Notes under the pieces: generated by a model
Database searches by the model: none
What the model was told of the DNA's origin: nothing
What the model saw: the letters and a program-made list of their open reading frames with translations, nothing else
Program-made: the position numbers and the translations under genes
Shown here: positions 823-60,486 of the stretch, one piece after another
Position numbering within the stretch: position 1 is the first letter of the stretch
How the letters are laid out: each line of letters starts with the position of its first letter
NCBI GenBank assembly: GCA_021018995.1
Contig: CM037591.1
Span: forward strand, 69,095,901 to 69,159,900
DNA from: Chloranthus sessilifolius
Lineage: Eukaryota > Streptophyta > Magnoliopsida > Chloranthales > Chloranthaceae
Length of the DNA stretch: 64,000 nucleotides
Reading direction: 5' to 3'

Positions 823-1446
823 CGATTAATCGATTTGGAATTTCGATTAATCGATTTTGTTCGATTAGTCGACTGGCATGCGCCAGTGACTGGAAATGTG
901 AAAGAGAGTTAGAATATACATAGAAGACCAAATTCGATTAATCGAATTGGACATTTCGATTAATCGATTTGGAATCAACAAGTCGATTTGGACATTTCGA
1001 TTAATCGAATTATATTTCGATTAATCGATTTACTTAAGAGATTTGAAGAAATTGAATACACATAGACAATTTCGATTAATCGAAGATAGTTTCGATTAAT
1101 CGATTTTGAAGTTTCGATTAATCGAAATGAGTTTCGATTAATCGATTATTTAAAGAATTCTGGAAATTGAGAAGTTACCACACGATTTCGATTAATCGAA
1201 GTGAAACTCGATTAATCGATTTTGGAATTTCGATTAATCGAAATGGATTTCGATTAATCGACTGGCTCGCGCCAGTGAGCTTAAAAATTTAAAATTTTAA
1301 TTAGATACGATTTCGATTAATCGAAATGATTTCGATTAATCGAATTTGACTTTCGATTAATCGATTTTGGAAATCGATTAATCGATTTTACGCGGCTTAA
1401 CCTAGTTTTGAATCTCGATTAATCGATTCTGAATTTCGATTAATCG
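823..1446. repeat. Palindromic CGATTAATCG array, internal copy (element A)
   Basis: I count 20 exact copies of the 10-bp palindrome CGATTAATCG plus one variant at 862. Starts are 823, 844, 935, 957, 998, 1018, 1073, 1093, 1115, 1135, 1189, 1209, 1231, 1251, 1314, 1333, 1354, 1375, 1416 and 1437. Within clusters the starts are 19-22 bp apart, close to two DNA helical turns. Larger gaps include 41 and 63 bp. Two CTGGC(A/T)(T/C)GCGCCAG palindromes at about 873 and 1262 sit inside the array. The array lies between pol and the accessory ORF and stops 11 bp before a TATA-like box. The same motif is arrayed in the LTR. Confidence 0.95.
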
Positions 1447-1456
1447 AGCCGCGGGC

Positions 1457-1467
1457 TATATATATAA
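1457..1467 (+). promoter_or_regulatory. TATA-like box of internal promoter (element A)
   Basis: TATATATAAGA lies directly after the palindromic array. It is followed by a pyrimidine-rich stretch with plant leader-like CTAGGGTTT and AAACCCTAAA words, and then by the accessory ORF starting at 1680. The layout fits an internal promoter separate from the LTR. Transcription itself is inferred. Confidence 0.55.
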
Positions 1468-1679
1468 GATTGGGGATTTTATTCCCCATTCGAAAAATTT
1501 TCTTGCTTTGGGGTTTTGGCGCTTCACCTTCTTCCTTCTTCTCCAACCAACCGAGCACTCTAGGGTTTATGCTTCGGTTTCGGATCGGATTCAACTACCA
1601 TCGCATCCAAAACCCACGGTAAACCCTAAATTGTGTTTTCCTTTCAATTTGAGTTAGAAAACCCTAGATTTTTCCCAAT

Positions 1680-2979
1680 ATGCCAAAACCCGATTGTCTT
1701 GAAGAAGGCGACTTCTAAGTTACGGTTAGGCGTGAACGCACCACCACCACCCCACCCCATCACGGTGAGGACTCCATCACCGTCGAATCGGAGACCACCT
1801 CCGGTTCGGACGAAGCGTCTCTGTGTGAGTCTTCCCAAATCCACCCCATGCCACCACCACCCACCAACGTGGAGTAACCAAAGCAGTGGTGGGCTGCCAA
1901 GATTGGTCGATATACCATCGACCCTACCCTTTTCACGATCGACGTCTTGCAGGCGAGACCCAATGGGCTCAAAACTATATAAACAATGCGGTCTCGGCAA
2001 TCTTCTCAAACCAATCCGGGTTCCTACTACCCTAGATTGGTGAGATTATTCTACCAAGGGCTAACCAATGGCCCTACCGATGACTGCATCATCACCAAGA
2101 TCGAAGGTCGTCTCTACACGATCACTCGGCGTCACATTCATGAGGTGCTCGAATGCTAGCTCGAGTTCACCCCAGAGACCACCCTATTCCCACCCTTTGT
2201 GGAAGACCCCGATTTGAAGTCATGACCCTCATGACAAATGGCAAGAAGGGTGCACTTCCATCAAGAGGGTTGATCTTCCACCCTACATGTGGATGCTCGA
2301 CTCCATAATAAAATGCAACCTTTACCCGATGCGCGACGACACGGAGCGCATGGACAAAGTGCAGCATGCACTTTACGCGGCCTTCTGTGGCCGATGGTTT
2401 GATGCTACCAAGGTCATCCTAGAAGGGATGAGGAACATCAAGGGCAAGTTGATGAAGGGCAACATGAGGCCCAAGGAAAGATGCCTATGCTCGGCTCATC
2501 TCGAGCATGTTGGAGTGCTACTCCAGAGCCATCTACACCATCTCACCTCACGAGGTGAGGGCTGAATCACGTGAAAGGCGTTCACAAAGTCTTCATGGAC
2601 CCATGCTTCTAACTACTGCGGACCCTACCTCAGGTCCGCTCCTTGACAACAGCCCGGCGGCTAGCAGCCACCACCACCCCACCACCTCGGCCACGACCCA
2701 CTTGAGGTGGGCCACACCACCCGTGAGCCATGCGTGGAGAGGGTTCCCTCCCACCACAGCCTCACCGACACCACCTCCACACTCGCGCCCGACACCCACC
2801 TCATCCTACTCAGCCGTGCTCCATCCAGTCCTACCATAGAGGGCGTGTTGGCGAGAATGGAAGCGAATAATGAGAGGATGAGCAGGAGAATTAATTTCCT
2901 CATGTTTCACACCCTCCAGTTCATCTACCCACACCTACATGGATATCTTTGGCTTGAAGAAGAATGGACCGGCACCTGA
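1680..2979 (+). pseudogene. Degenerate accessory ORF after pol (element A), homologous to element D's
   Basis: An ATG at 1680 opens a frame that can be followed to about 2210 through several stops. It then shifts frame through 2287-2565 and continues with further shifts to 2979. Recognisable segments are SYYPRLVRLFYQGL (about 2021), ITRRHIHEVLEC (about 2120), MLDSIIKCNLYPMRDDTERM (about 2290), a LYAAFCGRWFDATKVILEGM stretch, and AYARLISSMLECY in another frame near 2490. A proline/serine/threonine-rich part follows, then a short helical segment ending at 2979. The order and wording parallel the accessory protein of element D at 56637 (AYPRLVQLFYQHI, EVLGIP, FIDQVLRKNIYCS, PYARVITKLLLKGGY). This type is often annotated as a putative plant transposon protein (PF20167-like). 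That family name is my recall, not a search result. Function unknown. Confidence 0.65.
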
Positions 2980-3495: not shown

Positions 3496-4061
3496 TGTAA
3501 TAACCCGAAAAAGCACGACAAACGAGGACCTCGGGATCCGTGCCCGATTGGTCTTAGGTTTGACCATGAGATAGTTCATTGATAAACTTATGGTGAGATG
3601 AGCGAATGTGATGTGTGAACCAGTGTAGAAGAGTGGAGAGATAGAGGAGTGTGTGGCATACACGATGGGTGTGTATGTGCTCCACACCAGAAAAGAGATA
3701 AGATAAAAGGGTTGAAAACCCTAACTTTCATGTTTTGGTGGTTGAGAGAAGTAAAGAAGAGAGAGAAGAGAGAGGAGTAAGAGAGGAGTTATTGTGGGTG
3801 ATTGGAAGAAGGATTCAAGCATTAAAGAGGCGGATTTGATGCAGGAATCCGTTAGAACAAAAGCTGGAAACCCTAGCCTTCCAACCCTAGATTTGAAATC
3901 AACTTGAGATCTATTCAAGGTAAAATTTTTGTAAATAAGATGCATAGATTATAGGGGTTAAGTTGCGGTAAAATGTGGGTTAAATCATGGGATAATGGCT
4001 TAGAAAAATAGAAAAAGTATGGAAAAAGATTGGGAAGAAACACTCGAAAGAATCGACAATT

Positions 4062-4626
4062 CGATTAATCGAAATTGGGTTTGATGTCGAAATTGGCGAG
4101 GAAGTTGAAGAGTCGAGAGGACCCGATTTGATTAATCGAATTGGATTTGATTAATCGACTTTGGATTCGATTAATCGATTTGGGAATCGATTAATCATTG
4201 AAACCTCAGTGGACCCCGAGGTTGGAGGAAATAGCAAGGAAAAATCAATCGACTAATCGAATGGGATTTCGATTAATCGATTTTGGTTTCGATTAATCGA
4301 TTTGGAATCGATTAATCACCAGAAACTCGATTATTCGAACTGGGTCTACCTTGCGAAAGAAGGATTTCGATTAATCGAAATTGGATTCGATTAATCGAAT
4401 GAAAATTAATTTCAAGAAATTTTGCTTTATGAAGAGGAATTTCGATTAATCGAAATTGGATTCATTAATCAATGAAAAGTCAATCTGCTCGAATCGAGAA
4501 TGGACTTTAAAGGAGGATTTCGATTAATCGAAATTGCTTCGATTAATCGATATTGACCTTCGATTAATCGATTTTGGAAATCGATTAATCGATATTCATT
4601 AATCGATTTTGGAATTCGATTAATCA
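4062..4626. repeat. Palindromic CGATTAATCG array, LTR copy (element A)
   Basis: Eleven exact copies start at 4062, 4168, 4270, 4290, 4368, 4388, 4443, 4521, 4540, 4561 and 4582. One-base variants occur at 4129, 4148, 4188, 4250, 4309, 4328 and 4617. Neighbouring starts are mostly 19-21 bp apart. This copy is more decayed than the internal array at 823-1446, and many changes affect its CG dinucleotides (TGATTAATCG, CGATTAATCA). Confidence 0.93.
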
Positions 4627-4939
4627 ATCGTAGTAAACTATGTTGACTTTTGGTTTGACTTTAAGATTCTTGGGGATCTTATGCCTTCCTTATTGCATCC
4701 TTTGCGATGTGTTTTACCGTTATGTGGTACCATAGGTGGTACGTGGACCTGCACAAGGAGTCACGTGGGACCTTGATGCATACATCAAGTGAAGACTTGA
4801 GGTAGGGAACACCTTGAACATGTACCTTATTTTACAAGAGCATGTATGTAGTGATATAAATTTCCATTCAAATATTTTTACTGCTTAAAGAATTGTGAAA
4901 TGTGTCGGTGTGTGATACTCATAAGAGTAACTAATGAGC

Positions 4940-5329
4940 CATCCCTGTGGGATGAAGAGGTAAGAGAAAAGAGCATCGTGTGTGATGTAAGTAAATGGAT
5001 ACATCCTGTGGATGTATCCAAGGATTGAATCATGCTTGATAGGCCTAATCGATATAAGATAGCACACTTACACGGTAAATAACTATATGTAAGGCACCGA
5101 TATTTTTGTTATTTGAGGTTTGATAGGTTACCCCACCGACGTGGCGGGATATCCACGACTGACACGGCAGGATATCCGTGACCGATACGGCCGAAAACCG
5201 TGAGGCCAAGTGAGGCTTATCCGTACATAGTAAGCACACCCTGTGGGTGTTGATTGAGACAAGTGAAACCCCGCCACCAATCCCGTGGGAAAGGGGCTTG
5301 GTACTATATGGTATTCCTGTGGGGAATAC
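4940..5329. other. Series of short hairpins with TGT loops in LTR A
   Basis: Stem ATCC/CATCCC with loop TGT and GGGATG at 4940-4954; an 11-bp perfect stem starting TGGATACATCC with loop TGT at 4996-5020; ACACCC-TGT-GGGTGT at 5236-5250; TCCC-GT-GGGA at 5281-5290; GTATTCC with GGAATAC across a 5-nt loop at 5311-5329. Stem sequences differ but the CCTGTGG centre recurs, so structure is kept while sequence varies. Confidence 0.8.
5130..5205. repeat. Three imperfect ~24-bp tandem repeats in LTR A
   Basis: Three successive units read CCGACGTGGCGGGATATCC, CTGACACGGCAGGATATCC and CCGATACGGCCGAAAACC, each followed by a short GTGA-like end. They lie between the hairpins of the same LTR. Confidence 0.7.
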
Positions 5330-6087
5330 ATTAAAAGCTCTATATAGATGACGATGAAGGGTATCTCATTGGGGCTCGATGCTATATTGCTCGGGGATTA
5401 CTTAAGTTGAAAGTTTAAGTTTTGCTTTAGGCCTTTTCAGCATTATTCATGAGTAAATGAAAACATAAGTAATCAACAGTAAAACGAAATGCTTTTTAAA
5501 TTGTTTCACCAACAATTGCATAGATACATCATGCATGGCATATCATAGAATATATGTGAGTTATAATTTATATGTTCAACAGTGTTTGTTCCCTATTGAG
5601 CTAGGATGTAGCTCACCCTATAGACTATACGTCGCAGGTCCACTACTAGCAATGCCTGCTTCAGGAGACGCCGATCCCATGAGTCGGACCTTGCGGCCGG
5701 CGAGGAGTTAGAGCCACCTCCAGAGGACTTCTTCTAGAGGACTCTGCTGTGCGACTTTGAGGAGTTTTAGTTGGAGATTGTACGGCTTGGTATGTCAAGC
5801 CTGATTTTTGATTAAACCTTGTGTATAAGGATATCAGAGTATTCTTTTGGGCGAACCATCCATGATGATGGTTATCATCGATGGTTCGGATCGGTTCTCC
5901 CTTCATGCAGAGGCATGAGGGTAGAACTGTCTTTTGAGAAGTATTTCTATGTAGATTTAAATTCTGCAAGTTGTTCTTATTTATTTTATGCTTGATATAC
6001 CAGTGTTCCGTGCATAGTTGAGGGGCACGGTCAAGATGATCGTGCTGATGGCACGGGTTTCGGGGTGCCGAAATCCGGGCTGTCACA

Positions 6088-6470
6088 CCTCTGATCTAGA
6101 CCTAATAGCATACTTCGCACCCTTTTATATTTATTTTCCCACACTCCATCCATCTTCTCAACCCTTTCTGTAGTTAATTCATTAGGCTATCTTAGGATAT
6201 TTAGAATAAGTGACCCTAAACTCCCTTCCTTTTAGGACTGCCAGATCTGTAGTCAGATCTGGAGGGACTACTAGAGATGGCTCCCTTAGAGCCGTAGATC
6301 AACTTTTCCCTGTGGGACAAACTCTTACTTATCAAAACTTGCTACAAATGGACCCTGTATCTTACAGGTCTAGGATTTCTCAGTTGTGCTGATTCCATCC
6401 CCTGTTTTACTTTGATTTTAAATTGCTTTTACCACCAACAAATAAAGTAAGCACACTGGGAAATGCAATA
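6088..6470 (+). repeat. 3' remnant of 5' LTR of element B
   Basis: It matches 17138-17519 of the B 3' LTR almost base for base and stops just before the PBS (end GCAATA versus GCAACA in the 3' copy). The left part of this LTR was displaced by insertion of element A. Confidence 0.92.
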
Positions 6471-6476
6471 AATTTT

Positions 6477-6494
6477 TGGCGCCGTTGCCGGGGA
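6477..6494 (+). promoter_or_regulatory. Primer binding site, tRNA-Asp type (element B)
   Basis: TGGCGCCGTTGCCGGGGA is complementary to the 3' end of plant tRNA-Asp (ending in CAACGGCGCCA). It starts 6 bp after the LTR end. This is the usual Athila primer. Confidence 0.9.
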
Positions 6495-6826
6495 TAAGAT
6501 GATCTATTAGTAGACCCTTAGTTTTTATATTTTTAGTATTCTTTGTAGCTGTGAAGAATTGATACTGCTGATGTAATTTTGAATCTTTCTTACAGATCTA
6601 TACTGCAACAGAGAAGGACAGTGGACTGCATTTGGAGATTAACTACCTCTGTTTGCAATTCTCTAACCTTTAAAACTCAGTCTAGTTTCTTTGAAAATTC
6701 CATAGCATTTATTTAGGATAGTTGTAAATTTATGTTTTCTTAAATAGCTGTAAATTTGTTAGATAAATTCTTTGAGTCAAGTGCAATGTGCCTGCAAGGA
6801 GTTGTCCCTGCTGGTGGTGTGTTTGT

Positions 6827-8471
6827 ATGCTAGGTAGGAGATCTCTTAGTCCTACTTTAGAGCCTTTCAACCCTGAGATAGAAAGGGGTAGAAGACTTAG
6901 AAGGAACAGGCACACCACAGTAGAGCCCCCAAATGAATCTGAGACAGTAGTCATGGGTGAAGAACAACCCAGAACTCTCAAGGAGTTGAATGCTCCAGAT
7001 GACTATAACTCTCCATTTAGCATTCAATTCCCTGATGTTCGGGGGAATTATGAAATTAAAACTTCTATCATCCAGATGCTGCCCTCTTTCCATGGGCTTA
7101 GCAAGGAGGACCCTTATAAGCATATTGACCAATTTTTGGCCTTGTGCACCACATTCAATATCGCTGGTTTGGGACCTGAGGCTACTAGGCTCAGGCTCTT
7201 TCCCTTCTCTCTGAAGGATAGGGCTAGTAACTGGCTGGCCACTCTTCCCAACAATAGTATTGCATCTTGGAAAGACCTACAGACCAAGTTCCTGACAAAG
7301 TTCTTCTCTGAGACCAAAACTAGCCAGTTGAGGAAGGCAATTCTTGCTTTTGCCCAAGCCCCAACTGAGGATTTTAATCAAGCCTGGGATAGGTTCAAGG
7401 AAATGCTCAAATAATGCCCCCACCACATGATCCCAGACTGGTAGCTTATACAAAGCTTCTACAATGGGATTGATGAGAAAAATAGAGATACGGTTGATGC
7501 CTCTTGTGGTGGAACCTGCATGCACAAGACTGCTGATAAGGCATGGGAATTGTTTAAAGTAATCAGTGAAAATGCTTTTCAAAAGCTATCCCTGGGAAGA
7601 ACTAGTCAGGAGTCTGTGTCAAAAGAAGGGCCTGCTGCATTGTCAAGAGGAAAAGTTTATGAGGTGTTTGGGAATAATGACCTGTCACTGCAGATGGCAA
7701 ACCTCTGAGCGAAGTTTAACAAATTACTGACTGTGATGCAACCCAGAAGGGCTGCTCAAGTGGTGGAGGCATGTCTGAGATGCTAGTCCTCACAGCACAC
7801 AGTAGAGGAATGTCCATCTGTAGGGCAATATCCTGAATTGGTATTGGAGCATGTTGCTGCTGCGTAATCTTTTGGCCAGCAACAATCTGGTGGCTACAAC
7901 AGACAGCCATTTGGATACCAGCACCAAAATGCTGGTTACCAATGGAGACACACCCAAATCTGAGGTGGAGGCAAGACAATTATATGCAGCCCCAGCAAAT
8001 GTGGGCCTTACCCCAAAGGCCACAGCAGCACTTCAATCAGGGATATGCCCCTAGGTCTAATTTCTAACACCAGCAGCAGCCCCATCAGCTACAAAATCAA
8101 TTGGCCTTACCACCATCTCAACCTAGAAATACTTCTTTCGAGGACCAGGTCTTGATCTCACTGTAAAACCTGGGGTCTGTGGCTCTGACTGTGAATTCTC
8201 ATGGTCAGAGCATAAAGAAGATGGAAGAGCAGATTGGCCAACTAGCGAATGCCTTGGCTAGGGGAGATGAGGGGAGGTTGCCCTGCCAGCCGGTTGCTAA
8301 CCCCAAGGGTCAGTTTTTAATTGAAGAAGCTTCCTCAAGTTTTGAGGGAACCAATGCGGTCACTACCCTAAGGTCTGGCAGGCTGATAAACAACCAGGTG
8401 GGTAACAGACCTGCAGAGGTCATTTCCACAGATTATTCGAATGAGTGTGATGGGGATGCTGTTGGAACATA
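6827..8471 (+). pseudogene. gag: gag of element B (Athila capsid/nucleocapsid)
   Basis: The start at 6827 (MLGRRSLSPT) is chosen because the same ATG context recurs in D (50010) and E (41229). The gag domain follows: EEQPRTLKELNAPDDYN, LPSFHGLSKEDPYKHIDQFL, FPFSLKDRASNWLATLPNN, TKTSQLRKAILAFAQAPTEDF. A degenerate CCHC knuckle (ACLRC-stop-SSQHTVEEC) lies near 7775. Stops occur at 7412 (TAA), about 7440 (TAG), 7706, about 7785, about 7865, 8053 and others; most are explained by CAA/CAG to TAA/TAG changes when compared with D. The C-terminal part (QLANALARGDE, NAVTTLRSGRL) is the linker to protease. The protein would form virus-like particles in an intact element. This copy is dead. Confidence 0.9.
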
Positions 8472-8481
8472 GAGCTAAGAA

Positions 8482-11400
8482 TTGCCTGCCACCCTGCAGC
8501 AGGAGAAAAAGAAAGAGGCTGTAGTTGAGCCTCAGCAGGAAGAAAAACAAGAAAAAAGAAAAAAACATAAGTTTAGTCATTGGCTAGCAGCTAAGGAATC
8601 AGCAGTACCTCAGCTGCCATTTCCTCAAGCTTTAGGTGGTCCTGTCCCTTTTGAGAAAGGGAATGCCCAGATGGAGGAAATGATGGAGACCTTCAGGCAG
8701 GTGAAAATCAATTTGCCCCTGCTTGAGGCAATTAAACAGGTCCTAGCCTATGCAAAGTTCCTGAAAGACCTCTGTACCCAAAAGAGAAAAGTCGAGGCCA
8801 TATGTCCAAAAAAGTCATTGAAACTGATACAGTGAATTCTGTATTTAACATATCAATGCCTGAGAAGTTGCAAGGTCCAGGGATACCCACTATTCCCTGC
8901 ATAATTGGAGACCATACAATTGGGAAGGCCCTTTTAGACCTTGGAGCCAGTGTTTACCTGCTGCCATACAGTGTATATCTGCAGCTAGGATTGGGGGAGC
9001 TAAAACCTACCCCCATTGTGCTAATGATGGCTTATAGATCTGAGAGGAGGCCTATGGGAATGATTGAGGATGTCTTGGTAGGGGTAGACAAATTCTTTTA
9101 CCCTGCTGACTTCCTAGTTTTGGACATGGGCTGCAGCAAAGGTACTAATCCCATACCTGTTATCTTGGGCAGGCCATTCTTGGCCACTGCCAATGCATGC
9201 ATTCAGTGCTGGTCTGGAGTTATGGAGGTAACTTTCGGACATATGAAAGTTGAGCTGAATGTGTACAACAGTGCAAAGTACCCTCAAGAGGACAATGAGG
9301 AGAGCTTTACAGTGGATGTACTAGAAGAAATTATGGATGAAGAATTGCCCACTCTGCTGGAGTGGAGCAACACTGTCAGGAATTTAGTTAAAGTCTGGGA
9401 TATGGTGGAGGAAGAAAGCCCAGCTGTGATAACAGAAGACATGACCACATTGAAGTCTTCTGTGGGCTCAGTGCAGCATTCCATTTGGAAACCTACATTG
9501 GTGCCTCTTCCTCCAACCACCAATGCACCAATTTTGCCATCCACCCAACATGCCCCTGATCTGGAACTCAAGAAGCTTCCAGAAATATTAAAATATGCCT
9601 TCCTTGAGAAAGGTGATAAGCTTCCTGTGATTATCTCCTCCTCTCTTACCAATGAGTAGGACGAGGAATTACTAACAATTTTGAGGAAGCACAAAAGGGC
9701 AATTGGTTGGACCATTGCAGATCTGGGAGGAATAGATGCATCAATTTGCATGCACAGGATTCATCTTGAGGAGGGATCACTACTCTCCAGGGAAATGCAG
9801 AGGAAGTTAAATCCTCACATGCAGGAAGTGGTCCTCAAGGAGATCATTAAATTGCTAGATGCAGGGGTGATTTATCCCATCTCTGATTCTAACTGGGTGG
9901 CACTTATCCAAGTGGTGACCAAGAAATTTGGCATAACAATTATTAAAACCGAATCTGGAGAGTTGAGACCAGCCAGGGAGACCACTGGCTGGAGAGTTTT
10001 CATTGATTATAGAAAGCTCAACTCTAAGACCAGAAAGGACCACTTCCCTCTCCCCTTCATTGATCAAATTTTGGATAAATTGGCTAGAAAAGCTTTTTAC
10101 TGTTTTCTTGATGGGTACTCAGGGTACAACTAGATCCCTGTGCATCCTCAAGACCAAGAGAAAACCACCTTTACCTGTCCTTTTGGCACCTTTGCTTACA
10201 GAAGGATGCCTTTTGGGCTGTGTAATGCGCCAGCCACTTTTCAAAGGTGTATGTATGCCATATTCTCTGATATGATTGACAAGTTTTTGGAGATTTTTAT
10301 GGATGATTTTTCTGTCTATGGGGACAGTTTTGGCCAGTGTCTACAACACCTCAAATTTAGTTTTGTAAGATGTGAGGAGACCAATCTGGTCTTAAGTCGA
10401 AAAGAGCCACTTCATGGTAACACAAGGCATTGTGTTGGGCCATGTAGTTCTAAAGAAGGGCTTAGGAGGTAGACAAGGCCAAAGTTGACCTCATTGCCAA
10501 TCTGCCCCTCCAAAAATAGTCAAACAAATCGATCTTTCCTTGGGCATGCAAGATTTCACAGAGGTTCATTAAGGACTTGACAAAATTGCTAAGCCATTGT
10601 GCCACCGCTTTCTGGATGTGCCTTTCGACTTCTCAGCTGAATCTCTAAAGGCTTTTGAGACTTTGGAAGTCTGCCTTACCTCCCCCCACATACTCCGGAC
10701 ACGGACTATACCACATGTGTGATGCATCGGTTGGCAATAGGTCTTTGTCTTGGGCCAAAGAAAGGATAAGCTGCATGTGGTCATTGCTTATGTCAGCAAG
10801 TCACTTCTTTGAAGCTTCGGCTAAATTATACCTGGCCCGAGAAAGAGCTTCTTGCAGTTGTGTATGCTGTTGACAAGTTTATATCCTACCTGCTGGGATC
10901 TAAAACTGTAATCTTCACTGACCACTCAGCATTGAAGTACCTACTGTCCAAGAAAGATGCTAAGCTCAGGCTGATTAGATGGATACTCCTACTGTAGGAG
11001 TTTGACATCGAAATCAAGGACAAAAAGGGTGTGGAAAATGTGGTGGTTGACCACTTGTCCAGAATTGTTTCGGAGAAGTGTCTTGATGGTCCTACAAATG
11101 ATGCCTTCCTGGACGAGCAATTATTTGCAATCCAATCCTTGGTCCCCTGGTTTGCACACATTGTGAATTATCTTGTTATAGGAAAGATTCCTGCCCACTA
11201 GACCAAAATGGACAAAGACCTGTTTTTCTGACAGGTCATATTTTTTTTGGCAGGAACCTTGCCTATACAAGTACTGTGTAGACCAAATCATCCGAAGATG
11301 TGTTCCCGAAAGTGATGTCCCCAGTATTCTGGCCATGTGCCATGAAAATGCCTGTAGAGGCCACTTTAGTGGAAGAAAAATAGCTGACAAGGACCTACAG

Positions 11401-12437
11401 TGTGGGTTTTATTGGCCTTCTTTATTCAAAGATGCATATACACACTGCAAGGCATGTGAGAGATGTCAAAAATTAGGAGGGCTGTCCAAAAGAAATTCAA
11501 TGCCTTTCCAGCCCATCCTTGTTGTAGAACTGTATGATGTATGGGGTATAGACTTCATGGGCCCTTTTCCTCCTTCTAATGGTTATCATTTCATCTTAGT
11601 GGCAGTGGATTATATTTCCAAATGGGTAGAAGCCAATGCCACAAGAACCAATGACAACCAGGTGGTCCTCATATTTGTAAGGCAGAACATTTTCTCAAGA
11701 TTTGGAACCCCTAGAGCTATTATCAGTGATGGGGGTAGCCATTTCTGCAACAGGAATTTTGAACACTTGCTCAAGAAATATTCTGTGACCCATAGGATTG
11801 CTACTCCCTACCACCCACAGACAAGTGGGCAAGTTGAAATTTCCAATAGGGAGACCAAGCACATCCTTGAGAAAAGCGATGGGGAGGAGAGAGAGATTGG
11901 GCTGATAAGCTCAATGATGCACTGTGGGCTGATAGGGCTGCCCATAAGACTCCCATTGGAATGTCCCCATTCAGACTGGTCTATGGCAAGGCTTGCCATC
12001 TCCCAGTAGAGTTAGAACACAAGGCCTATTGGGCCATTAAAAACTTAAATATGAACCTAACTTCTGCTGGTCATCACAGGTCCCTGCAGCTGTTTGAATT
12101 GGACGAGCTGAGGATGGATGCCTACGCCAATGCCAGGATCTACAAGGAACGGTCTAAAGCTTTCTTTGACAAGGGCTTACTGAGAAAAAGCTTCGTACCT
12201 GGTGGCAAGGTCTGGTTATTTAAATCCAAACTAAAATTCTTTCCTGGCAAACTAAAATCCCGATGGGAAGGTCCCTATATTGTCTTAAATGTTTCCCCAT
12301 CTGGTGCTGTGGAAGTAAAGGATCCCAAATCTGGGAGGACCTTGAAAGTGAATGGTCAGAGGCTTAAGCCTTGTCTCGAAAGACCGGCTGACCCTATGAA
12401 CACTATTCATTTTCAAGGGACCCCTTCATCTACCTGA
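8482..12437 (+). pseudogene. pol: pol of element B (protease, RT, RNase H, integrase)
   Basis: Linker 8482-8800, then an aspartic protease region (IPCIIGDHTIGKALLDLGAS, about 8900) with a DLGAS active site and LGRPFLAT. RT starts near 9690; VFIDYRKLNSKTRKDHFPLP and the catalytic FMDD (about 10294) are intact. A stop (TAG) replaces Q in GYNQIP at 10132. From about 10395 to 10800 several small indels scramble the frame; one is a 2-bp loss relative to D at the SWEKSH segment. RNase H ([16 protein letters not shown]) is near 10915. The integrase HHCC region with HCKACERCQ lies near 11440, and the DDE residues are in [17 protein letters not shown] and [10 protein letters not shown] frameshift near 11880 precedes the C-terminal domain ([11 protein letters not shown]), which ends TGA at 12437. 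Confidence 0.92.
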
Positions 12438-12690
12438 CCCACAGTTGTGTCCATGTTGTATTGTACTACTTTCATTTCTTCAATAGTTTTTAGGAAATTA
12501 TAGTGTCTCAATGGGGTCTGAGTCTGTTGGGTTTAATAGAGTTTATGTGGGGTGGTATGATTACTTCTTCTTCTGCGATTTGCTGATTTTTGAATTGAAT
12601 GCATATTGTTTGAATATTTTTCATGAGTATGCTACACTGCATGAATTGCTCCCTGTTTGGTACTAAGCCCTCGAGCATTCCAAATTGAGA
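12438..12690 (+). other. Post-pol spacer of element B, non-coding
   Basis: This T-rich spacer after the pol stop is similar in position and partly in wording to 55644-55900 of element D. No ORF of note is seen. Confidence 0.6.
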
Positions 12691-12696
12691 TTTGGG

Positions 12697-12972
12697 AAGC
12701 TCTCGTGCAATTCACATAGAGTATTTATTATGCCGTCATGAGCTTCAACAAACGCTGCAGAGCCTCTCGCGCACTGCAAGCTGCAACATCCATCATCGCG
12801 AGATTCCATTCCTATCTCGCGATCCCCTTGCCCAGCTGTGCGAGTCACATGCATTTGTAATTTCCCACGCTGATTGCTATAACTTTTCACTTCCCAACTC
12901 ACTCTCAATTAATTGCGGCAACTTGGATGTTATTACACCGATTCATCTTCCACCATCCTCGTCTTTAAATAC
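12697..12972 (+). promoter_or_regulatory. Internal promoter module: TCGCG motifs and TATA-like box (element B)
   Basis: Motifs GCTCTCGTGCAATTCAC (12703), CCTCTCGCGCACTGC (12767), CATCGCGAGATTCC (12796) and ATCTCGCGATCC (12817) are of the same type as the LTR array at 15323-15660. A TATA-like CTTTAAATACAC lies at about 12962-12972, about 80 bp before the ATG at 13044. The corresponding D segment (60476) has TATTTTAAATG at the same distance from its ATG. Confidence 0.6.
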
Positions 12973-13043
12973 ACAGGGAGTCCCTTTCATATTCATCTCA
13001 TCCTTTCTCCTCTCACCCTAGCGGTCCTTCCCTAGTCCTAACA

Positions 13044-24733: not shown

Positions 24734-24734
24734 A

Positions 24735-47320: not shown

Positions 47321-47328
47321 GAGGTTCC

Positions 47329-49688
47329 TGTTAAGACCTAAAAAGTACCACTTTTCACCCCTTAACTTAATCTCTGTTAGACTCTTAGTCATTTAATAAA
47401 TGACTGTTAAGACAATTTTGTAGGTAATAAGCAGAAGCTGCAAATAAGCCCCTAACCATGCCAAGAAGCCTGCTGTTGCCCCAGAAGTTCCTCAGAAGAA
47501 AGAAGGTCCAACCCAAACAGAGAATTGGCTACAGCATAGGCACAGCAAAGTAGAAACAAGTCAAGAAGAATGCCTCATGCAGATGTCACAGGGTTCAATT
47601 GAATAAGAAAGAATGAGCTTGTCGCTGGCTTCAAGGCAAAGAACCAACCGGTCGTGACCGTTTCATGGCAGATGGATGTCGATGAGTAAAAGCATACTTT
47701 GCACAGTTCTCGCAAGTCTCAATCATAAGTGCTCATGCAGCACTCACGCAGTCTCGCGCAGTTAATGAAATGAGTCTTCAATCCACGCACGATTCACTTA
47801 AGAGAGAGAGCTCCAAGCATTCCTGCGCGAAGCTGTCGCACAGTGGCCGCGGGATACAAACTTTCAAGGAACTGCTCACGCGATCTAGAAGCCCATGCAC
47901 ATTGTTTCTATGCGAGGATCGACACGGGATTCATCAAGGAATGAACTGCGTGCGTAATTCCCCTGCCATTTAAATGGAAAGAATAATCCCACAACGACTA
48001 GAGCATCCCCGCGATGATCAAAGTACCAAGCCCGCGACGGCAACAGCTTCAAGTAAAACCAACCCCGCGATGCCAATTCTATCACACGATAAGACCTAGA
48101 AATCCTTTCTACCCAGCGAGGCTCGGGTTCTTAACTTCTCCCCCACTTCTGCAGGGGCAATCTGGGAACTTCCAGCAACTAGGGCATGCATTCCAATGCT
48201 CCAATCTCCGTGCACATGGCCCGAGGCATCCGAGGAATAGAAATGGGCCATGATAGCATTGATAAATTAGGGTTTTCCTAACCCTAATTCTCATAGAGCT
48301 GACGGCTATATAAGCCTAAGCCGAGCTTAGGTTTAAAGGACTTGACTTCTGTACTCCTTCCTTAATCAATTGTAGAATTATAGTAGGCTAAGGTTAGTGT
48401 TTAGGCAGTTTCTTTTTCCCTTTTTCTTCTCTCCATAGTCCAGCACTTGCTGGCTATACGTTTGTATGTCTATTTGGAATAGATTTAATTGAGTTTTATA
48501 ATAGGATTTTATGCATGTATGGGATTGGTGTTTTGGGAGTTGTTTTGTACAAGGCTGCTGCCTTGAGGTCCTTCATTGTTAAGTTGTATTGTAAGCAATG
48601 GAGGATTGTTTTTAAGGTGTTATTTAGATCCAAGTGACCCGTGTGTCTAGGTTAGACACATTGCAGGCCTAGCCCCACCACAGGATCCACTAAATCTAAA
48701 CCCCCATGGGAGCTTGAGCTGGTAGCCTTGTGAACATGGTGGCGGCAGCAATCTGAGGCCAATCCATAGATATAAGGCAGATTCTTCTTCTCTGCACTTG
48801 TGCTTGTAGCCTTGTGAGAGATTGTATTGAGACAGACTCCCTTGTATTTGTATAGACCCACCATCAGATGGCAGATCTGATCTGGCTGTAGAGATTGTAG
48901 GCTTGTGACTGGATCACTGCTGTCTTTCTAAAGCAGTGAACAACTAAGCTTAAAAGCTAGTACTCAAACTCTTGCAGGTTCTGTGTCCAGGCTAGTACAA
49001 ATTGCAGGCGTAGCTCCACACATAGAACTTTAGAGGTTGAGGTTCCTATGGATTCTTGAGCTGGTAGCCTGGATGAAGTAGTGCCTATAATGATAAACTT
49101 GTTCTGACCCATCTTTGGAATGTGGTTCCCTTATTGGATAGTCTGTGACCATTCAAGTGGAAAGGTTATAGCCATAAGGGATTGGATCATGGCACAGGGG
49201 TGAGTTGGATCCTTTCTCCTCTTTGGTGATAATGTAGCCATTGGATAGGATTTCTATAGCAGCAAATCTGAGTCTGAGTTATAAGACCCATCAAATCTAC
49301 ACCTAATAGCTTACTTCTCACCATTTTATATTTATTTTCTCACACTCCATCATTCTTCTCAACCCTTTCTGTAGTTTTGGCATTAGGTTACCTTAGGATT
49401 TAGATAACAGTGACCTTAAATCCCCTTCCATTTTGGAATGCCAGATCTGTAGCCAGATCTTGAGGGCCTACTAAAGATAGTTCCCTTGGAGCTTTAGATC
49501 AACTTTCACTATGGGACAAACTCTTACTTATTAAAACTTGCTACAACAGGCCCTCTATCTAGTAGGATTGTGTATTGTTAGGCTTGCTACTCTGTAGTTT
49601 TCAATCCACCTTTGATTCATTTTCACTAACACCATTCTTATCACTGTCTCCAATAAAGTCAGTAGCAAGCACTTAAAATACCTCAACA
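47329..49688 (+). repeat. 5' LTR of element D (2360 bp)
   Basis: TGTTAAGACCTAAAAAGTACC to CCTCAACA. It contains TCGCG/TCGTG-type motifs (about 47570-48110), a TATATAAG box at 48307, and the GTAGCC repeats. Compared with the 3' LTR, differences are mostly transitions, several at CG sites of the motif array (for example CTCATGCAG versus CTCGCACAG). Confidence 0.9.
48307..48314 (+). promoter_or_regulatory. TATA box of 5' LTR D
   Basis: TATATAAG in GACGGC..CCTAAGCC; identical in the 3' LTR at 63591. Confidence 0.75.
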
Positions 49689-55643: not shown

Positions 55644-56006
55644 TCCACAGGTGTGTCAATATTGTATCATATGTACTTTGGTTTTGTTAGATTTGTCTTG
55701 CTTTCTTTCTCTAGGAAATTTTAGTGGCCCCACTTGAATCTGGACCTGTCTGGTTTGAATTTTTTTTTGCTTGGTTTGATGATTACTGCTCTTAGATTGA
55801 TTGTTTTTTATTGAATGCATAATGTGGGAGGGTGATTTTTGTTGTCTTTGCTTGAATGATTAATTTTATTGTGTCTGGAGGTACCCATGGTGAGAGTCAG
55901 GCCTAGGATCCAGCCACAACACAAATGGAAAGGGCAGAACTGAGAGCACATGCTCTATGTTTACTACTTTGATGCCACTAGGTTCAAAAGGAGGCCTGAG
56001 AGACTC
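55644..56006 (+). other. Post-pol spacer of element D
   Basis: T-rich non-coding sequence parallel to 12438-12690 of B; no gene seen. Confidence 0.6.
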
Positions 56007-56359
56007 TTGCGCAGTTCACATAGAACCATTCAATAACTGTCGTGAGATTCAAGTACTCCTGAGAACCTCTTGCGCGATCCAAATAAGCATTTCACTAGCT
56101 GTCGCGTGGTTCAGCAGGAAGCCTGGGAGACTCTCACGCAATTCAAAAAGAACCTCAGAGCTTTTTATGCAATCCAAATGGAGACCTGGGAGCCTCTCGC
56201 ACAATTCACATGGAATTCTTCACATACTGTCGTGCGCTCCAAGGTCAACCTGGGAGATTGTCGCGTAATCGAAGTTGAATAGCACCTTTGTTAGGTTCAT
56301 TTCCAATCCCACGACCAGATTTTTCCAAAACGCGCCAAGCTTCGCGATAAGTATTTTAA
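56007..56359 (+). promoter_or_regulatory. Internal promoter module 1 of element D: ~32-bp phased TCGCG array and TATA-like box
   Basis: Motif cores (TCGCG and decayed forms) start at 56007, 56040, 56070, 56102, 56134, 56166, 56197, 56230 and 56261; distances 33, 30, 32, 32, 32, 31, 33 and 31 bp, about three helical turns. Each is in a GAGACTCTCGCGCAATTC-like unit of a loose tandem repeat. A last TCGCG lies at 56342, then TATTTTAA at 56352-56359 and a CT-rich leader. The accessory ORF begins at 56637. Confidence 0.75.
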
Positions 56360-56636: not shown

Positions 56637-59600
56637 ATGGCCCCCAAGAGTGCACTAAAGAAAATGGGCAAGGATAAGGCCCTTGTTGAAACCACTCCTA
56701 AGAAGGCCAAGACTTCAAAGCCACCTAAAAAAGAGAAGGAAGTGGTTGAGGGGGTGGAGGAGCCAACCCTTGAGTTTTCTACTCCTTCCGAGCTCATGGT
56801 TTCAATCCCATTGGAGCCTGAGTCAACTTTCAACCTGCCCTTCTTCGAGAAGGAGCCTCTCTTTGCTCTTGCCATTCAATTCATGAGCAAGGCTGGCCTG
56901 ACACCCATGATGAGAGGAATTCCAGCACTAGCCTACCCTAGGCTAGTGCAACTGTTTTATCAGCACATCAGGGTCAAAAAAGATAAAGATGGACAAGCAG
57001 GGCTACTGTAGGGCTATTGGTGTTGATTGACAATTTTGAGATGTTAGTGAGCCCTAAAGTGATTGCAGAAGTATTGGGCATCCCAGCCACATTCGACCCT
57101 AGCTATGGATATGGCCCCCCCCTGACTGCCTCAATTGATATAATTGCAAGGGCTTTGACTAGAGGATTAAAGACCTCAGGGGATTGAATCAGAAGAAGAG
57201 AATTAGAGCCTGAACTCCTCTTCATTGACCAAGTCCTGAGAAAGAATATTTACTGCTCAAGATATCAGCAGGAGAGGAGAGCTCCCATTGCGGATGCTGT
57301 CTATTCTTTCTCTCTAGGCCATGGCTTCCATGCAGCCTGGCTCATCTTTGAGGCAATGAAAGACTTGGTGGAGAAGTTAGGGCAGAACAAGAAGCCTCAC
57401 ACACTCCCCTATGCCAGAGTTATTACCAAGCTACTTTTGAAAGGGGGGTACAAGATAGCAAAAACAGAGGGGACTACCACCCTTGCCCCTACTACTTTTA
57501 CCAAGAGGCAATGGGGAATCAGCAGGAGCCTGATGGAGGCCTAGAAGAAGAAGAAATCTGAGGCTCAGGCCCTTCCCAACCAAGCGGAAGAGGTAGCTGT
57601 TACAAGGGGCACCCCTGTCACTACAAAGGAGATTCCAGAGCCTGTTACAACCACTGCTGCAGCAACCACCTCAAACCCCCCACTTTTTCCTCAAGCATCC
57701 ACTACCCCTATTCCATCTATCTCTCACCCTCCTCTGTCCTCATTATCTATGCCCACTCTCCCTTCACCTGTGATTGGTACATGGGAGGACACCACCCCTC
57801 ATGTCAGCCCCTCCCCATCTCCTATCCTACCTCAATACACAGCCCCCATACCCCCATCATCTTCACATATACCTGACAGCCCTCCACTCATTTCCTATAA
57901 AAAATAGAAAACCACTGAGACAACCCCCACCATCTCCTAGACACCACCAACAATCCCTTTTATCCCCACTGACACCCCTAACATTGACCCAGACACCACT
58001 CTAGCCATACCTACTACCTCCCCATTCCCAGACATTGACTTTAACCTTAACACAATCACAGGATTCCAAGCCTTTATGGCTAGTTTCCTTGACATAATGC
58101 CCAGCCACTACACCCCCCTCTCGGACTCCCCAATTACATCACCACATCACTCCCCAAAACAATCTCCTCCTCCCTCCACTTTCCATCATGCCCCTTCCTC
58201 ACCTTTTCAACCTGTGCCCTATTCTACACAAACTCAACCTCCCAGCCCAGACACACTGACACTCATCCTTTCCCTCATCCAAGACATCCAATCCAAACTA
58301 TCGACCACTACACACACCCAGGACCAGATTTAGATAGAACTTACATCCATCAAATCCACCCTACAGACATTAACCAGCCCACCCATCCCTCCACAATCCA
58401 CTACAACCCCCCTGGTCCTTTCCCCTGACTCTCACATCCAAGATTCCAGCCTTGACTCACAACCCCCCCACCACCAACAATCCCTTTAATCCCCACAATC
58501 CCACCATTCTCTTTCATACCTTTCACCATTCCCATTTTCCCTCCTCCATCACCCCCTACTCCTAGTGAGCCTACCCCATTTTCCTTGCCCCCCATGCTTT
58601 TCGTCCCACATCTTATCCTACCCCCTCCCACATTCACTGACAAACAGACCCAAACAGACCCAGAACCTGTTTCCCTCTCCCAACCACTAGACTTACCCAC
58701 TGTTAACCCCATTTCCCCCACTCAGGACCAATCACAGTTTGCTCCTTCCACTTCCTATCTGCCTATCGCACCCAAACACCCTTTTTACATTCCTCCTTAC
58801 CTCACCATCCTCTATGCCATGAGAGACAATCCTTATCTTCGAAAGGATGTCCTGAGGGGCATGTCCCAACTTCGATAGTCCATTAAGGCCCCCCTGCTGT
58901 AGCAGATTGATGAAATGAAAGAAGCCCACCGAAAGTAATTACTGGGTATCTCCCTGGGGTGGACTAACATATTGGAGGCCTATCAGAAGGCCCAATCTAT
59001 AGCTGCTTATCATTAGCTGAATCTAGAGCTGGAGAAAGCCAACACTACTGTAGAGAAGATGAAAGCAAGACTTTTCGAAAAGAGGCTCAACATTGCCTAG
59101 GAGATCTTCAGGCTCTAAAAGGAAATCCATGAGACTGACCTCCTCAAAGCCAAAATCTAGATAGCCTCATTGGAAGTTGCATTGGCTGTTGCCAGACCTG
59201 CAGCTCAGGAGCCCAACCCACTCTCTGTCCGCATGCCAGACCCTGAGCCTAAAGCTACTCCAGAGCCACCTGTTCAGTCTAAGGAGGCACAACCAAAGAT
59301 CCAGCCAGATAAAGGGAAGGCCCCTGCTGCCCCTCCTTCATCACCTCCTATCGAGCAGCCTCCACCTACCAAGACCCTTGCTTCACCTATTACAGAGCAA
59401 ACTTATTCTAAACAAAGAAAAGTCACTGCTAAGAGGAATGCTTACACAGCAGCCTCTATTGAAATTGGCAAAGAGCCAGCTGCCCAATCTGAGGAGGTAA
59501 AACCCCCTGGCAAGCCTAAACCCAAAGCAAAAGGGTAGTACCCAGTGGCCTCCACTGAGAAAGGCAAAGGTAAATCTCCTATGGTCCCTCCTGAACCTAA

Positions 59601-59847
59601 AACCAGAAAGATGAGGGTGAGGGCACCAAAGGCTCCAACCATGAAGAAACCCCCACAGCCAAAGCAGCCAAGGTAGCAGAAGAAAAAGAGCCCAACTAGG
59701 AAACCTAGGAAGAAAAAGACTTAAGCTCCATCAGATCGAACCAAGTCCAAGCCCAGTTCTGAGAGCAAAGCTGAAATGAGGAAACATGCCAAACAGATGG
59801 GTTGGGACTGGTTCACAGATTCAGATTCAGATTCCTCCTCCTCTTAG
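56637..59847 (+). pseudogene. Long accessory ORF of element D
   Basis: About 1070 codons from ATG at 56637 (MAPKSALKKMGKDKALVE) to TAG at 59845. It needs two frame changes (near 57005 and between about 58430 and 58585) and crosses about 14 stops, mostly TAG, e.g. 57542. Layout: basic N-terminus; a conserved domain (about 56900-57470) with AYPRLVQLFYQHI, SPKVIAEVLGIPATF, FIDQVLRKNIYCS and PYARVITKLLLKGGYKI; a long Pro/Ser/Thr-rich middle; a probable coiled coil near 59010-59160 (LELEKANTTVEKMKARLFEK); a Lys/Pro-rich basic part (KKPPQPKQP); and an acidic tail DSDSDSSSS. The domain is homologous to the accessory ORF of A (1680) and resembles the PF20167-like plant transposon protein (recalled). 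No membrane segment is seen, so it does not look like an envelope protein. Role unknown. Confidence 0.75.
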
Positions 59848-60183
59848 AACCTAGATTGTAGATTAGGCTTTTCGTGCCTTTGTACTTCTTTTCTAGTTAT
59901 TGTAATTACAATTATACATGTTTTTCCAAGTTAATAAAATTTTTCTTTATTTTTTTGTATATTGATTTATGTGCCATATCTGTTCTGTGTGCTTGTTTAA
60001 TTTTTTTTTGTCTTCATATTGTTCACTTTTGTCAGTAACATGGGAGATGAATTTAGGGAGGCTATTCTCATTTGAAATAGGAATCCAAGTGAAGGGTAGA
60101 TGTAGATGGCAACTGAGTGAATGCATGACATTGTGCAAGTACAGACCTCAGCACAAATGGTGCACAGAGGTCGAGTGTTGATC
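59848..60183 (+). other. Spacer between the two accessory modules of element D
   Basis: T-rich with AATAAA at 59934, a plausible polyadenylation signal for the long accessory ORF. No gene. Confidence 0.5.
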
Positions 60184-60486
60184 TCGATCAAGGGACTAAA
60201 ATGGCCTCATTTTCATAATCGTGGGCCATGTCAGAGCTTGCTCGCGGAGTCCTGAGAGCGCGCAAAGCAGAATTCCACATCTTCCAGGGTGCAGTTGTGT
60301 GATACACGGGATCACCTTAATTACCAATGCTAAATTTAGACCATCATTTATTGTGCGTTCTCTCTTTTCCCATAATCAGCTGTGCGATTCTTCACTCCCC
60401 GAACACTCACAATTTATTGCCAAGCTTAGAAAGGGACAAAACTTTAATATGCCGATTCATTTTCCACCATCCAAGTATTTTAAATG
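60184..60486 (+). promoter_or_regulatory. Internal promoter module 2 of element D
   Basis: Scattered motifs ATCTCGATC (60184), AATCGTGGG (60219), GCTCGCGGAGTCC (60242) and AGAGCGCGCAAAG (60256) are followed by CCACCATCCAAGTATTTTAAATG with a TATA-like TATTTTAAAT at about 60476. It corresponds to 12697-12972 of B, including CGATTCAT(C/T)TTCCACCATCC. The array is less regular than module 1. Confidence 0.55.

What the first reader, a model, noticed from the sequence alone, without database searches (positions are those of the whole stretch)
823..60486. Each retroelement family carries its own motif array, in the LTR and again at an internal promoter of an accessory gene
Seen in the sequence: four different short motifs form arrays in A (TCGATTAATCGA), C (27-bp palindrome), E (CCTGTCGAGAGG) and B/D (CTCTCGCGCAGTTC-like). 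In every family the same motif is clustered in the LTR and in the region after pol. The internal array ends 11 bp (A), 12 and 22 bp (C, two modules) or about 6 bp (D module 1) from a TATA-like box, followed by an accessory ORF. Sequences differ by family, yet the layout is the same. Surrounding sequence is not LTR-derived, so this is not simple LTR duplication. Inference: each family ties genomic-RNA transcription and accessory-gene transcription to one sequence-specific factor, possibly encoded by the element. There is a known parallel in plant VANDAL transposons, where an element-encoded anti-silencing protein binds family-specific short motif clusters.
Basis: partly seen in the sequence, partly recalled or inferred. 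Interest (0 to 1): 0.9.

Follow-up and report, generated by a model that had tools for sequence, protein, structure and literature searches.

The report
Paired operator arrays in plant retroelements
In this plant genome, several different families of virus-like jumping genes each carry their own short DNA motif, repeated many times both in the main promoter region and in front of an extra gene, which suggests that each family runs its two promoters through one switch of its own.

Summary
The window holds five nested Ty3/gypsy elements of an unnamed 2.17-Gb plant genome: A (chromovirus), B/D/E (Athila-like), C (Ogre/Tat-like). Motifs learned only from post-pol arrays hit the same family's LTR: A 19 sites (0.26 expected), E 16 (0.22), C 2 full-length palindromes scoring far above all else. 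B/D share a degenerate CpG core, 11 of 13 hits in B/D arrays, weaker in the LTR. Among other copies, 29 of 29 A have a post-pol array, 23 of 29 exactly 8 bp before a TATA box; 9 of 10 have the LTR array. Internal arrays occur in 8 of 8 E, 8 of 8 D and 3 of 5 C copies; the other 2 C copies lost the accessory region. Sites are helically phased in A, D, E. A's accessory ORF shows coding constraint. E and B/D, related elements, differ in motif at both sites. The layout is in print for Ty1/copia Sireviruses (PMC2829016); new here are Ty3/gypsy lineages, antisense genes, TATA docking and phasing. That the factor is element-encoded is inferred, not shown.

The parts
248..658 (+). Element A, end of pol: integrase C-terminal SH3 plus chromodomain
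   Evidence: Pfam PF24626 E 1e-18; PF00385 E 2e-5, just under cut-off
802..1447 (.). Element A internal array: 22 TCGATTAATCGA-type sites (19 exact), spacing mostly 18-22 bp
   Evidence: present in 29 of 29 other copies
1456..1468 (+). TATA box CTATATATATAAG, 8 bp after the last motif
   Evidence: same gap in 23 of 29 copies
1680..2850 (+). Element A accessory ORF, broken in this copy; Transposase_32-like (PF20167); limits approximate
   Evidence: colinear pieces 1983-2156 (E 6e-4) and 2218-2562 (E 0.01), below Pfam cut-off; coding constraint across copies
3496..6087 (+). Element A 3' LTR; the 5' LTR lies left of the window (L053 2602-5228, 93% identical)
4061..4627 (.). Element A LTR array: 20 sites, 11 exact
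   Evidence: found in 9 of 10 copies fetched
6088..17519 (+). Element B (Athila-like): rest of 5' LTR, gag-pol, post-pol, 3' LTR from 15139
12690..12840 (+). B internal array, CTCTCGCGCA-type sites; TATA-like TTTAAATA at 12964, over 100 bp further on
13044..13220 (+). B small accessory ORF (MADDKSNALPNKFYPMWLE...), diverges in frame from D's
15310..15830 (+). B LTR CpG-rich array
27803..29383 (-). C accessory gene 1, antisense; plant mobile domain / DUF7745-like
   Evidence: PF10536 E 5e-6 and PF24924 E 1e-4, both below cut-off; pieces
29434..29443 (-). TATA-like box of C module 1 (CCTTATATGC on the minus strand), 20 bp from the array
29464..29637 (.). C internal array 1: four imperfect 27-bp palindromes at 48-bp spacing
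   Evidence: 2-4 units in 3 copies retaining the region
30385..32567 (-). C accessory gene 2 region, antisense; plant mobile domain piece 31737-32279, candidate GT-AG intron 32259-32352; gene limits not established
   Evidence: PF10536 E 8e-13, above cut-off; splice check
33920..33925 (-). TATA-like TTTAAA of C module 2, 13 bp from the array
33939..34062 (.). C internal array 2: three 27-bp palindromes
35815..37330 (+). C 3' LTR (end approximate)
36218..36383 (.). C LTR array: two palindromes plus a half-site
   Evidence: 3-4 palindromes at 47-48 bp in two other copies
38644..40886 (+). E 5' LTR
39020..39630 (.). E LTR array (about 20 CCTGTCGASAGG-type sites, many degenerate; spacings around 21, 31, 52)
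47042..47324 (.). E post-pol array, interrupted by D; continues in L052 1070-1290
   Evidence: 8 of 8 other copies
47329..49688 (+). D 5' LTR
47560..48130 (+). D 5' LTR CpG-rich region with 2 core sites
56004..56270 (+). D internal array 1: CTSTCGCG-type sites about 32 bp apart; TATA-like TATTTTAA at 56352
   Evidence: 8 of 8 other copies
56637..59850 (+). D accessory gene 1 (frameshifted; 3' limit approximate), homologous to A's and E's accessory genes; basic N terminus
60236..60310 (+). D internal module 2: a few CGCG sites by eye; TATA-like TATTTTAAA at 60476
   Evidence: no core hit and none among the 10 training sites
60554..60793 (+). D accessory ORF 2, about 79 aa, lysine-rich
   Evidence: no Pfam match
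62664..64000 (+). D 3' LTR (continues to L052 1064), CpG-rich region 62890-63440 with 2 core sites

Best explanation
Each element family carries operator arrays: many copies of one family-specific, CpG-containing site, palindromic in A and C, partly so in E. One array lies in the LTR. A second lies upstream of a TATA box that drives a separate accessory gene between pol and the 3' LTR; that gene is sense in A, B, D and E and antisense in C. One sequence-specific, cooperatively binding factor occupies both arrays and so couples accessory-gene expression to genomic-RNA expression. The factor is most likely the accessory protein itself, which would make a positive autoregulatory loop working like foamy-virus Tas at its LTR and internal promoter. 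It may act by excluding silencing, as VANDAL VANC does, rather than by classical activation. SHOWN here: arrays at both sites (D LTR weak), family specificity, fixed array-TATA docking in A, helical phasing in A, D and E, difference of motif at both sites between E and B/D, coding constraint on A's accessory ORF. INFERRED: promoter activity, binding, coupling, and that the factor is element-encoded.
For: Train-internal/test-LTR and the motif-by-group density table: A motif 21.5/kb in A internal and 9.5/kb in A LTR, 0 in the nine other groups; C motif 9.8 and 7.7, at most 0.04 elsewhere; E motif 8.7 and 10.8, 0.3-0.4 in controls. Copies: A 29 of 29 internal, gap to TATA 8 bp in 23 of 29 while motif number varies 13-24, LTR array 9 of 10, at LTR +576 to +599 in the 8 with a recognised start; E 8 of 8 internal; D 8 of 8; C 3 of 3 retaining module 1. 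Spacings of at most 80 bp peak at a period of 10.5 bp: A internal n=420 mean cosine 0.73, E internal n=66 0.80, D internal n=84 0.68. Accessory proteins of A, D and E are homologous. Codon-position substitutions 238:216:1257 in the 112 pairs that passed the length and identity filter among the 21 of 29 A copies with an ORF of at least 100 aa. C's gene 2 is antisense with a canonical candidate intron that keeps frame, so genomic RNA cannot express it.
Against: No expression, TSS or binding data. No DNA-binding domain was recognised; D's accessory pieces match no Pfam family, and the fold attempt on C failed (mean pLDDT 38.5). A, D and E have homologous proteins but different motifs, so specificity must have switched. 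The full-length D matrix finds 0 sites in D's two window LTRs, the 14-mer pattern 0.54/kb there; of 4 D-copy LTR fetches 1 reached the right place, with 3 sites against 0.58 shuffled. C spacing (48 bp) is no whole number of helix turns. D module 2 shows no core site. E has no clear nearby TATA. The motif-switch argument rests on one comparison (E against B/D), and those motifs share a CTSTCG core and cross-match (D pattern 4.6/kb in E LTR, E pattern 2.0/kb in D internal). Patterns were written after reading the sequences.
Confidence: 0.55

Rival explanations
1. A host transcription factor, different for each family, binds both arrays. The elements use one host-recognised module at both promoters, as LTRs do with stress boxes; the accessory protein has another job, for example RNA-silencing suppression or an envelope-like role.
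For: The Sirevirus authors found mainly stress-factor matches for their motifs (PMC2829016, section 9 read). Homologous accessory proteins sit beside different motifs.
Against: Arrays of 13-24 near-identical 12-mers look denser than usual host boxes (recalled). The A site pair occurs 110,758 times in the genome, against 0 for the reversed control pattern, so one host factor might be titrated (inference). Motif identity follows element family at both sites.
Confidence: 0.27
2. The arrays are anti-silencing (VANC-like) recruitment sites and not activator operators: an element protein bound there keeps both promoters unmethylated.
For: Motifs are CpG-containing arrays that vary in copy number, as VANC targets do. 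In A, mismatches in the LTR array are CpG transitions in 29 of 55, but in the internal array of the same 8 copies in only 4 of 30 (Fisher p 0.0004), as if the internal promoter were less methylated.
Against: The fixed 8-bp array-TATA gap in A and helical phasing look like promoter docking. Where the accessory proteins match Pfam at all it is PF20167 or PMD, not VANC's DUF1985/DUF287.
Confidence: 0.3
3. The arrays are by-products: tandem repeats made by replication slippage or template switching, or fold-back sequences that feed siRNA, with no promoter role.
For: About half of recent Retand elements carry tandem arrays between pol and LTR, function unknown (PMC11963269, abstract and Discussion read). 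Copy numbers vary.
Against: In A, sites recur while the sequence around them is not similar between LTR and internal array once masked; A arrays stop at the TATA and never enter the pol flank (0 sites in 29 x 1.5 kb). Arrays sit at the same two kinds of place in all families.
Confidence: 0.07
4. The internal array is a displaced piece of LTR (duplication or gene conversion).
For: Retroelements recombine often, and motifs match between sites.
Against: The motif-masked A comparison has no hit better than E 0.9; in C, LTR-internal similarity is confined to the palindrome clusters.
Confidence: 0.03

Closest known systems
Repeated motifs (RM) of envelope-containing Sireviruses (Ty1/copia), Bousios et al. 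2010, PMC2829016 (sections 9, 10, 19 and passages read)
   Same: [quoted passage not shown] four elements without ENV lack linker copies). The authors say this supports an internal promoter for ENV but could not identify one.
   Different: Ty1/copia, and called Sirevirus-specific there; all but Tnd-1 share a CGG-CCG core, whereas here each family has its own core. In the parts read: no TATA docking at the internal array, no helical phasing, no antisense genes; stress-related host factors suggested.
Foamy virus Tas with LTR and internal promoter (PMC8670036 and PMC4929722, abstracts in the listing)
   Same: One accessory regulator acts on both the LTR and an internal promoter; here one motif lies at both.
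   Different: An animal retrovirus; the regulator is proven there and not here. Site arrangement not compared; no homology tested.
VANDAL/VANC anti-silencing system (PMC5735166, PMC10398659, passages read)
   Same: Family-specific short motifs in dense repeats of varying copy number in non-coding parts; motif differs between related families.
   Different: VANDAL is a DNA transposon (Mutator-type, recalled); the protein has DUF1985/DUF287; VANC21's motif is a 9-mer arrayed in one orientation, not arrays at an LTR and an internal promoter.
Grande gene23 and Retand/Ogre antisense accessory genes (PMC7264820 parts 1-2 of 3; PMC11963269 abstract, passages, Discussion; PMC6317226 passages)
   Same: Accessory ORF between pol and 3' LTR, antisense in C; Grande's is reported to have its own promoter and a nuclear protein; plant mobile domain reported in 57% of Ogre elements.
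   Different: No shared LTR/internal motif described in the parts read.

Membership tests
Sirevirus-type RM layout (as architecture) | Same motif clustered in LTR and upstream of post-pol ORF | tested here: met
   A, C, E strong; B/D weaker, D LTR weakest
Sirevirus-type RM layout (as architecture) | Motif palindromic | tested here: inconclusive
   A yes (matrix self-complementarity 1.0). C yes by direct search (two 27-mers with at most 1 mismatch), though its off-centre matrix scored -0.13. E: 2 perfect CCTGTCGACAGG among 28 sites, the rest half-site variants (matrix 0.07). B/D not clearly (0.23)
Sirevirus-type RM layout (as architecture) | No internal copies when the ORF is absent | tested here: met
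   2 C copies without the accessory region lack internal palindromes (one stray half-site) but keep LTR palindromes; trivially explained by one deletion removing both
Sirevirus (lineage) | Ty1/copia domain order | tested here: not met
   A has integrase SH3 plus chromodomain at the end of pol; C has RNase H-like, integrase zinc-binding, then rve: Ty3/gypsy order
Chromovirus (A) | Chromodomain at integrase C terminus | tested here: met
   PF00385 E 2e-5 (24.6 bits, cut-off 25.1); PF24626 E 1e-18. Tekay sub-clade recalled, not tested by tree
Athila-like (B, D, E) | Gypsy gag-pol, LTR starting TGTTAAG, tRNA-Asp-like PBS, PF20167-type 3' ORF | tested here: inconclusive
   gag domain in B and D, homology among B, D, E, PBS by eye (type recalled), accessory homology of D and E to A's PF20167-like ORF; no RT tree
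Ogre/Tat (C) | Extra RNase H (aRH), long post-pol region with antisense PMD ORF | tested here: inconclusive
   PMD on minus strand and PF13456 in 24681-25652; whether that is the extra RNase H was not tested; no tree
VANC system | Protein with DUF1985/DUF287 | tested here: not met
   No such hit at E up to 10 in ten accessory pieces
VANC system | Motif-bound protein removes methylation | not testable with these tools
   Only indirect: CpG-transition bias, LTR against internal
Foamy Tas-type circuit | Accessory protein binds and activates both promoters | not testable with these tools
   Cis layout met; no binding or activity data

The most novel reading that the evidence does not exclude
Plant Ty3/gypsy elements of several lineages have built foamy-virus-like circuits: a private, rapidly switching DNA-binding accessory protein (PF20167-like in the chromovirus and its homologues in Athila-like elements, plant mobile domain type in the Ogre/Tat-like one) binds phased site arrays in its LTR and at its own internal promoter, so each family is transcriptionally insulated from the others and partly protected from silencing. 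Host plant-mobile-domain silencing proteins such as MAIN/MAIL1 (abstracts in the listing) would then descend from, or mimic, such regulators.
Probability: 0.4. Interest if true: 0.88.

Novelty: new variant of a known kind. Interest (0 to 1): 0.7.

Why it matters
The role of the extra ORFs in plant LTR elements is an open question (PMC7264820, PMC11963269). A family-specific motif shared by LTR and accessory promoter gives each of these proteins a predicted binding site that one DAP-seq or EMSA experiment could test. If binding is found, plant retroelements would have regulators like those of complex retroviruses, and a rule of one motif per family would explain how thousands of copies could respond together without cross-talk.

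Tried and rejected
LTR duplication as source of the internal array: rejected. A first mixture-model motif finder converged on wrong motifs and was replaced. Exact shared k-mers do not support B/D; only a CpG-decay-tolerant core does. Homologues of the C plant-mobile-domain protein in the 5.8-billion-protein set: 1,426 candidates, none at E 0.001. IMG/VR scans: A motif pair 1 contig (not followed), C palindrome 0, Athila-like RT 13 pattern matches but 0 relatives. AlphaFold of the C protein failed (pLDDT 38.5), so no fold search was made. PDB sequence search: 0 hits for C gene 2; hits for gene 1 were DARPin repeats, taken as spurious. LTR positions of other E and D copies were guessed from the window: of 6 E fetches 3 reached an E-type LTR (2 with arrays; in the third, L062, similarity to E's LTR ends about 300 bp in, before the array position, with 7 sites against 3.6 shuffled), 3 other DNA; of 4 D fetches 1 reached the array position, 2 fell at the LTR end, 1 on other DNA. 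Copies examined come from the 40 best-scored matches of each search (first-look candidates 3,558 A, 6,407 E, 7,672 C, 5,714 D), so they are biased to the window's own subfamilies. Of 40 A matches I used the 29 cut loci besides the window's own, and for LTRs 10 copies (9 of those 29 plus one uncut match); of 40 E 8 internal and 6 LTR fetches, of 40 D 8 and 4, of 40 C 5. The CpG comparison used 8 of the 9 A copies with an LTR array (the ninth has no internal locus). C module 2 was not tested in other copies.

Full report
WHAT THE WINDOW IS. The 64-kb window is plant DNA from an unnamed 2.17-Gb genome (position C8:69095901-69159900) made of nested Ty3/gypsy elements. A, a chromovirus (integrase SH3 and chromodomain), sits in the 5' LTR of B (L053: B LTR 570-2601, then A's 5' LTR 2602-5228; the 5 bases CCTCT follow A and stand at the matching place of B's 3' LTR). 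B sits in C (Ogre/Tat-like, with antisense plant-mobile-domain genes). E (Athila-like) sits in a second C-type internal region, and D (Athila-like, related to B) sits inside E's post-pol array (GTTCC on both sides). Lineage names rest on domains and recalled hallmarks; no RT tree was made.

THE ARRAYS ARE REAL AND SHARED. TCGATTAATCGA occurs 30 times exactly in the window, 19 after A's pol and 11 in A's LTR, nowhere else. Matrices trained only on post-pol arrays and scanned over the window hit the same family's LTR: A 19 (0.26 expected), E 16 (0.22), C 2 full-length palindromes with scores 39 and 44 against 12 at best elsewhere; for B/D 2 hits in B's LTR (0.30 expected) and none in D's. A CpG-decay-tolerant core for B/D has 13 hits in the window, 11 of them in B/D arrays; it was chosen after looking, and it misses D's module 2. 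CpG counts are unusual in the B/D LTR arrays but not in the B/D internal modules. With motifs masked, A's two arrays share nothing better than E 0.9, so the internal array is not a displaced LTR.

OTHER COPIES IN THE GENOME. The paired A motif occurs 110,758 times in the genome and the reversed control pattern never. A: 29 of 29 other copies carry a post-pol array of 13-24 sites; the last site lies exactly 8 bp before a TATA box in 23 of 29 and within 3-26 bp in 28 of 29; no site follows the box in the stretch held, and none lies in the 1.5 kb before. LTR arrays: 9 of 10 copies; the tenth is the copy whose TATA gap was abnormal (280 bp). E: 8 of 8 copies carry the internal array, 16-26 half-sites against about 2.2 in shuffles; of 6 LTR fetches 3 reached an E-type LTR, 2 with arrays, and in the third the similarity ends before the array position. 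D: 8 of 8 internal arrays, 1-3 core sites against 0.06-0.11 shuffled; 1 of 4 LTR fetches reached the right place, with 3 sites against 0.58. C: 3 of 5 copies retain the module-1 region and have 2-4 palindromes there; the other 2 lack what corresponds to about 27.5-34.5 kb of the window, have no internal palindrome (one stray half-site), and keep 3-4 palindromes in the LTR.

FAMILY SPECIFICITY AND JOINT SWITCH. The density table of four motifs over eleven groups is close to diagonal: A's motif is absent from the nine other groups, C's at most 0.04/kb outside C. The E and D motifs bleed into each other (E LTR 4.6/kb for the D pattern, D internal 2.0/kb for the E pattern) because both hold a CTSTCG core. 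E, B and D are homologous in LTR start (E against B 78% over 59 bp) and in pol (E against D about 71%), yet their dominant motifs differ at both sites. That is one comparison, so it is suggestive and not proof.

ARCHITECTURE. Site spacings peak at the helical period 10.5 bp: A internal n=420 mean cosine 0.73, E internal n=66 0.80, D internal n=84 0.68; A's LTR peaks at 10.25 (0.70). In the window's own arrays the phase exceeds a jitter control (p 0.003 or less). C's 48-bp spacing is no whole number of turns. Both C modules point at minus-strand genes, the second with a candidate GT-AG intron that keeps frame. A gene antisense to the genomic RNA needs its own promoter. The accessory proteins of A, D and E are homologous (BLASTP 1e-10 and 1e-5 for A against D pieces, 1e-12 for E against D, 3e-4 for E against A); A's matches PF20167 in two colinear pieces, both below cut-off. 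In 18 of 29 A copies the longest ATG ORF after the TATA box starts 206-240 bp after it, with a basic N terminus; 21 of 29 have an ORF of at least 100 aa in the stretch held, and among these substitutions fall 238:216:1257 on codon positions 1:2:3 (112 pairs that passed the filter, not independent): the protein has been under coding constraint.

MECHANISM. The simplest reading is a two-promoter regulon: a factor bound cooperatively to phased sites serves the LTR and, in A docked at the TATA box, the accessory gene. The accessory protein is the best candidate for the factor: in A it is constrained, and such a gene lies next to the array in each family. That step is inference. One observation could favour an anti-silencing role: mismatches in A's LTR sites are CpG transitions in 29 of 55, in internal sites of the same 8 copies in 4 of 30 (p 0.0004), as if the internal promoter were less methylated.

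WHAT IS KNOWN. Bousios et al. 2010 (PMC2829016; sections 9, 10, 19 and passages read) reported palindromic motifs in Sirevirus LTRs and, in nine ENV-containing elements, again mostly upstream of ENV; elements without ENV lacked the linker copies. They called it Sirevirus-specific. So the layout is known in Ty1/copia; the Ty3/gypsy cases here extend it to other lineages, to antisense genes and to family-specific cores without the CGG-CCG signature. Grande gene23 is reported to have its own promoter and a nuclear product (via PMC7264820, parts 1-2 of 3 read; original paper not seen). Retand antisense proteins are predicted DNA binders with a suggested regulatory role (PMC11963269, abstract, passages and Discussion read). 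PMD in 57% of Ogre elements: PMC6317226 (passages). A PF20167-like Athila ORF and Tekay 5' ORFs in sunflower: PMC11728184 (passages). Foamy Tas acts on LTR and internal promoter: PMC8670036, PMC4929722 (abstracts in the listing). The listings showed me no paper describing a shared LTR/accessory-promoter motif in Ty3/gypsy elements; I opened only a few of the listed papers, and the library holds only open-licence ones.

Noticed in passing
L052 5683-7870 (right of the window): The LTR that closes E's accessory half is of another subfamily than E's 5' LTR (38644-40886) and carries CCTATCGA-type sites; E looks recombinant or part of a tandem arrangement.
   Followed up: partly
A arrays 802-1447 and 4061-4627, eight other copies: CpG-transition decay is frequent in LTR motif sites and rare in internal sites of the same copies.
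   Followed up: partly
873-890 and 1261-1275: Two CTGGC-GCCAG palindromes inside A's internal array, resembling the outer part of C's palindrome.
   Followed up: no
L068/L073/L075 and L071/L074: Two C-family copies that lack about 7 kb of post-pol region with both antisense genes; candidate non-autonomous derivatives.
   Followed up: partly
12675-12748 and 56169-56242: B's internal array aligns partly to D's module 1 although B keeps only the module-2 ORF; B may have fused array 1 to gene 2 by a deletion.
   Followed up: no
about 13480-13492 and 61048-61058: A second TTTGGGGGTG tract, like the polypurine tract, about 1.6 kb before the real one in B and D (also near L052 4565).
   Followed up: no
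18351-18804 and 38487-38643: 24-bp tandem repeats coding a proline-rich stretch in the C-type ORF before gag.
   Followed up: no
32259-32352: Candidate GT-AG intron in the antisense plant-mobile-domain gene of C, in frame.
   Followed up: partly
60554-60793 and 13044-13220: Small accessory ORF with its own TATA-like box in D and B; D's is lysine-rich and has no Pfam match.
   Followed up: no
L001: One IMG/VR contig has a single TCGATTAATCGA pair; not examined.
   Followed up: no
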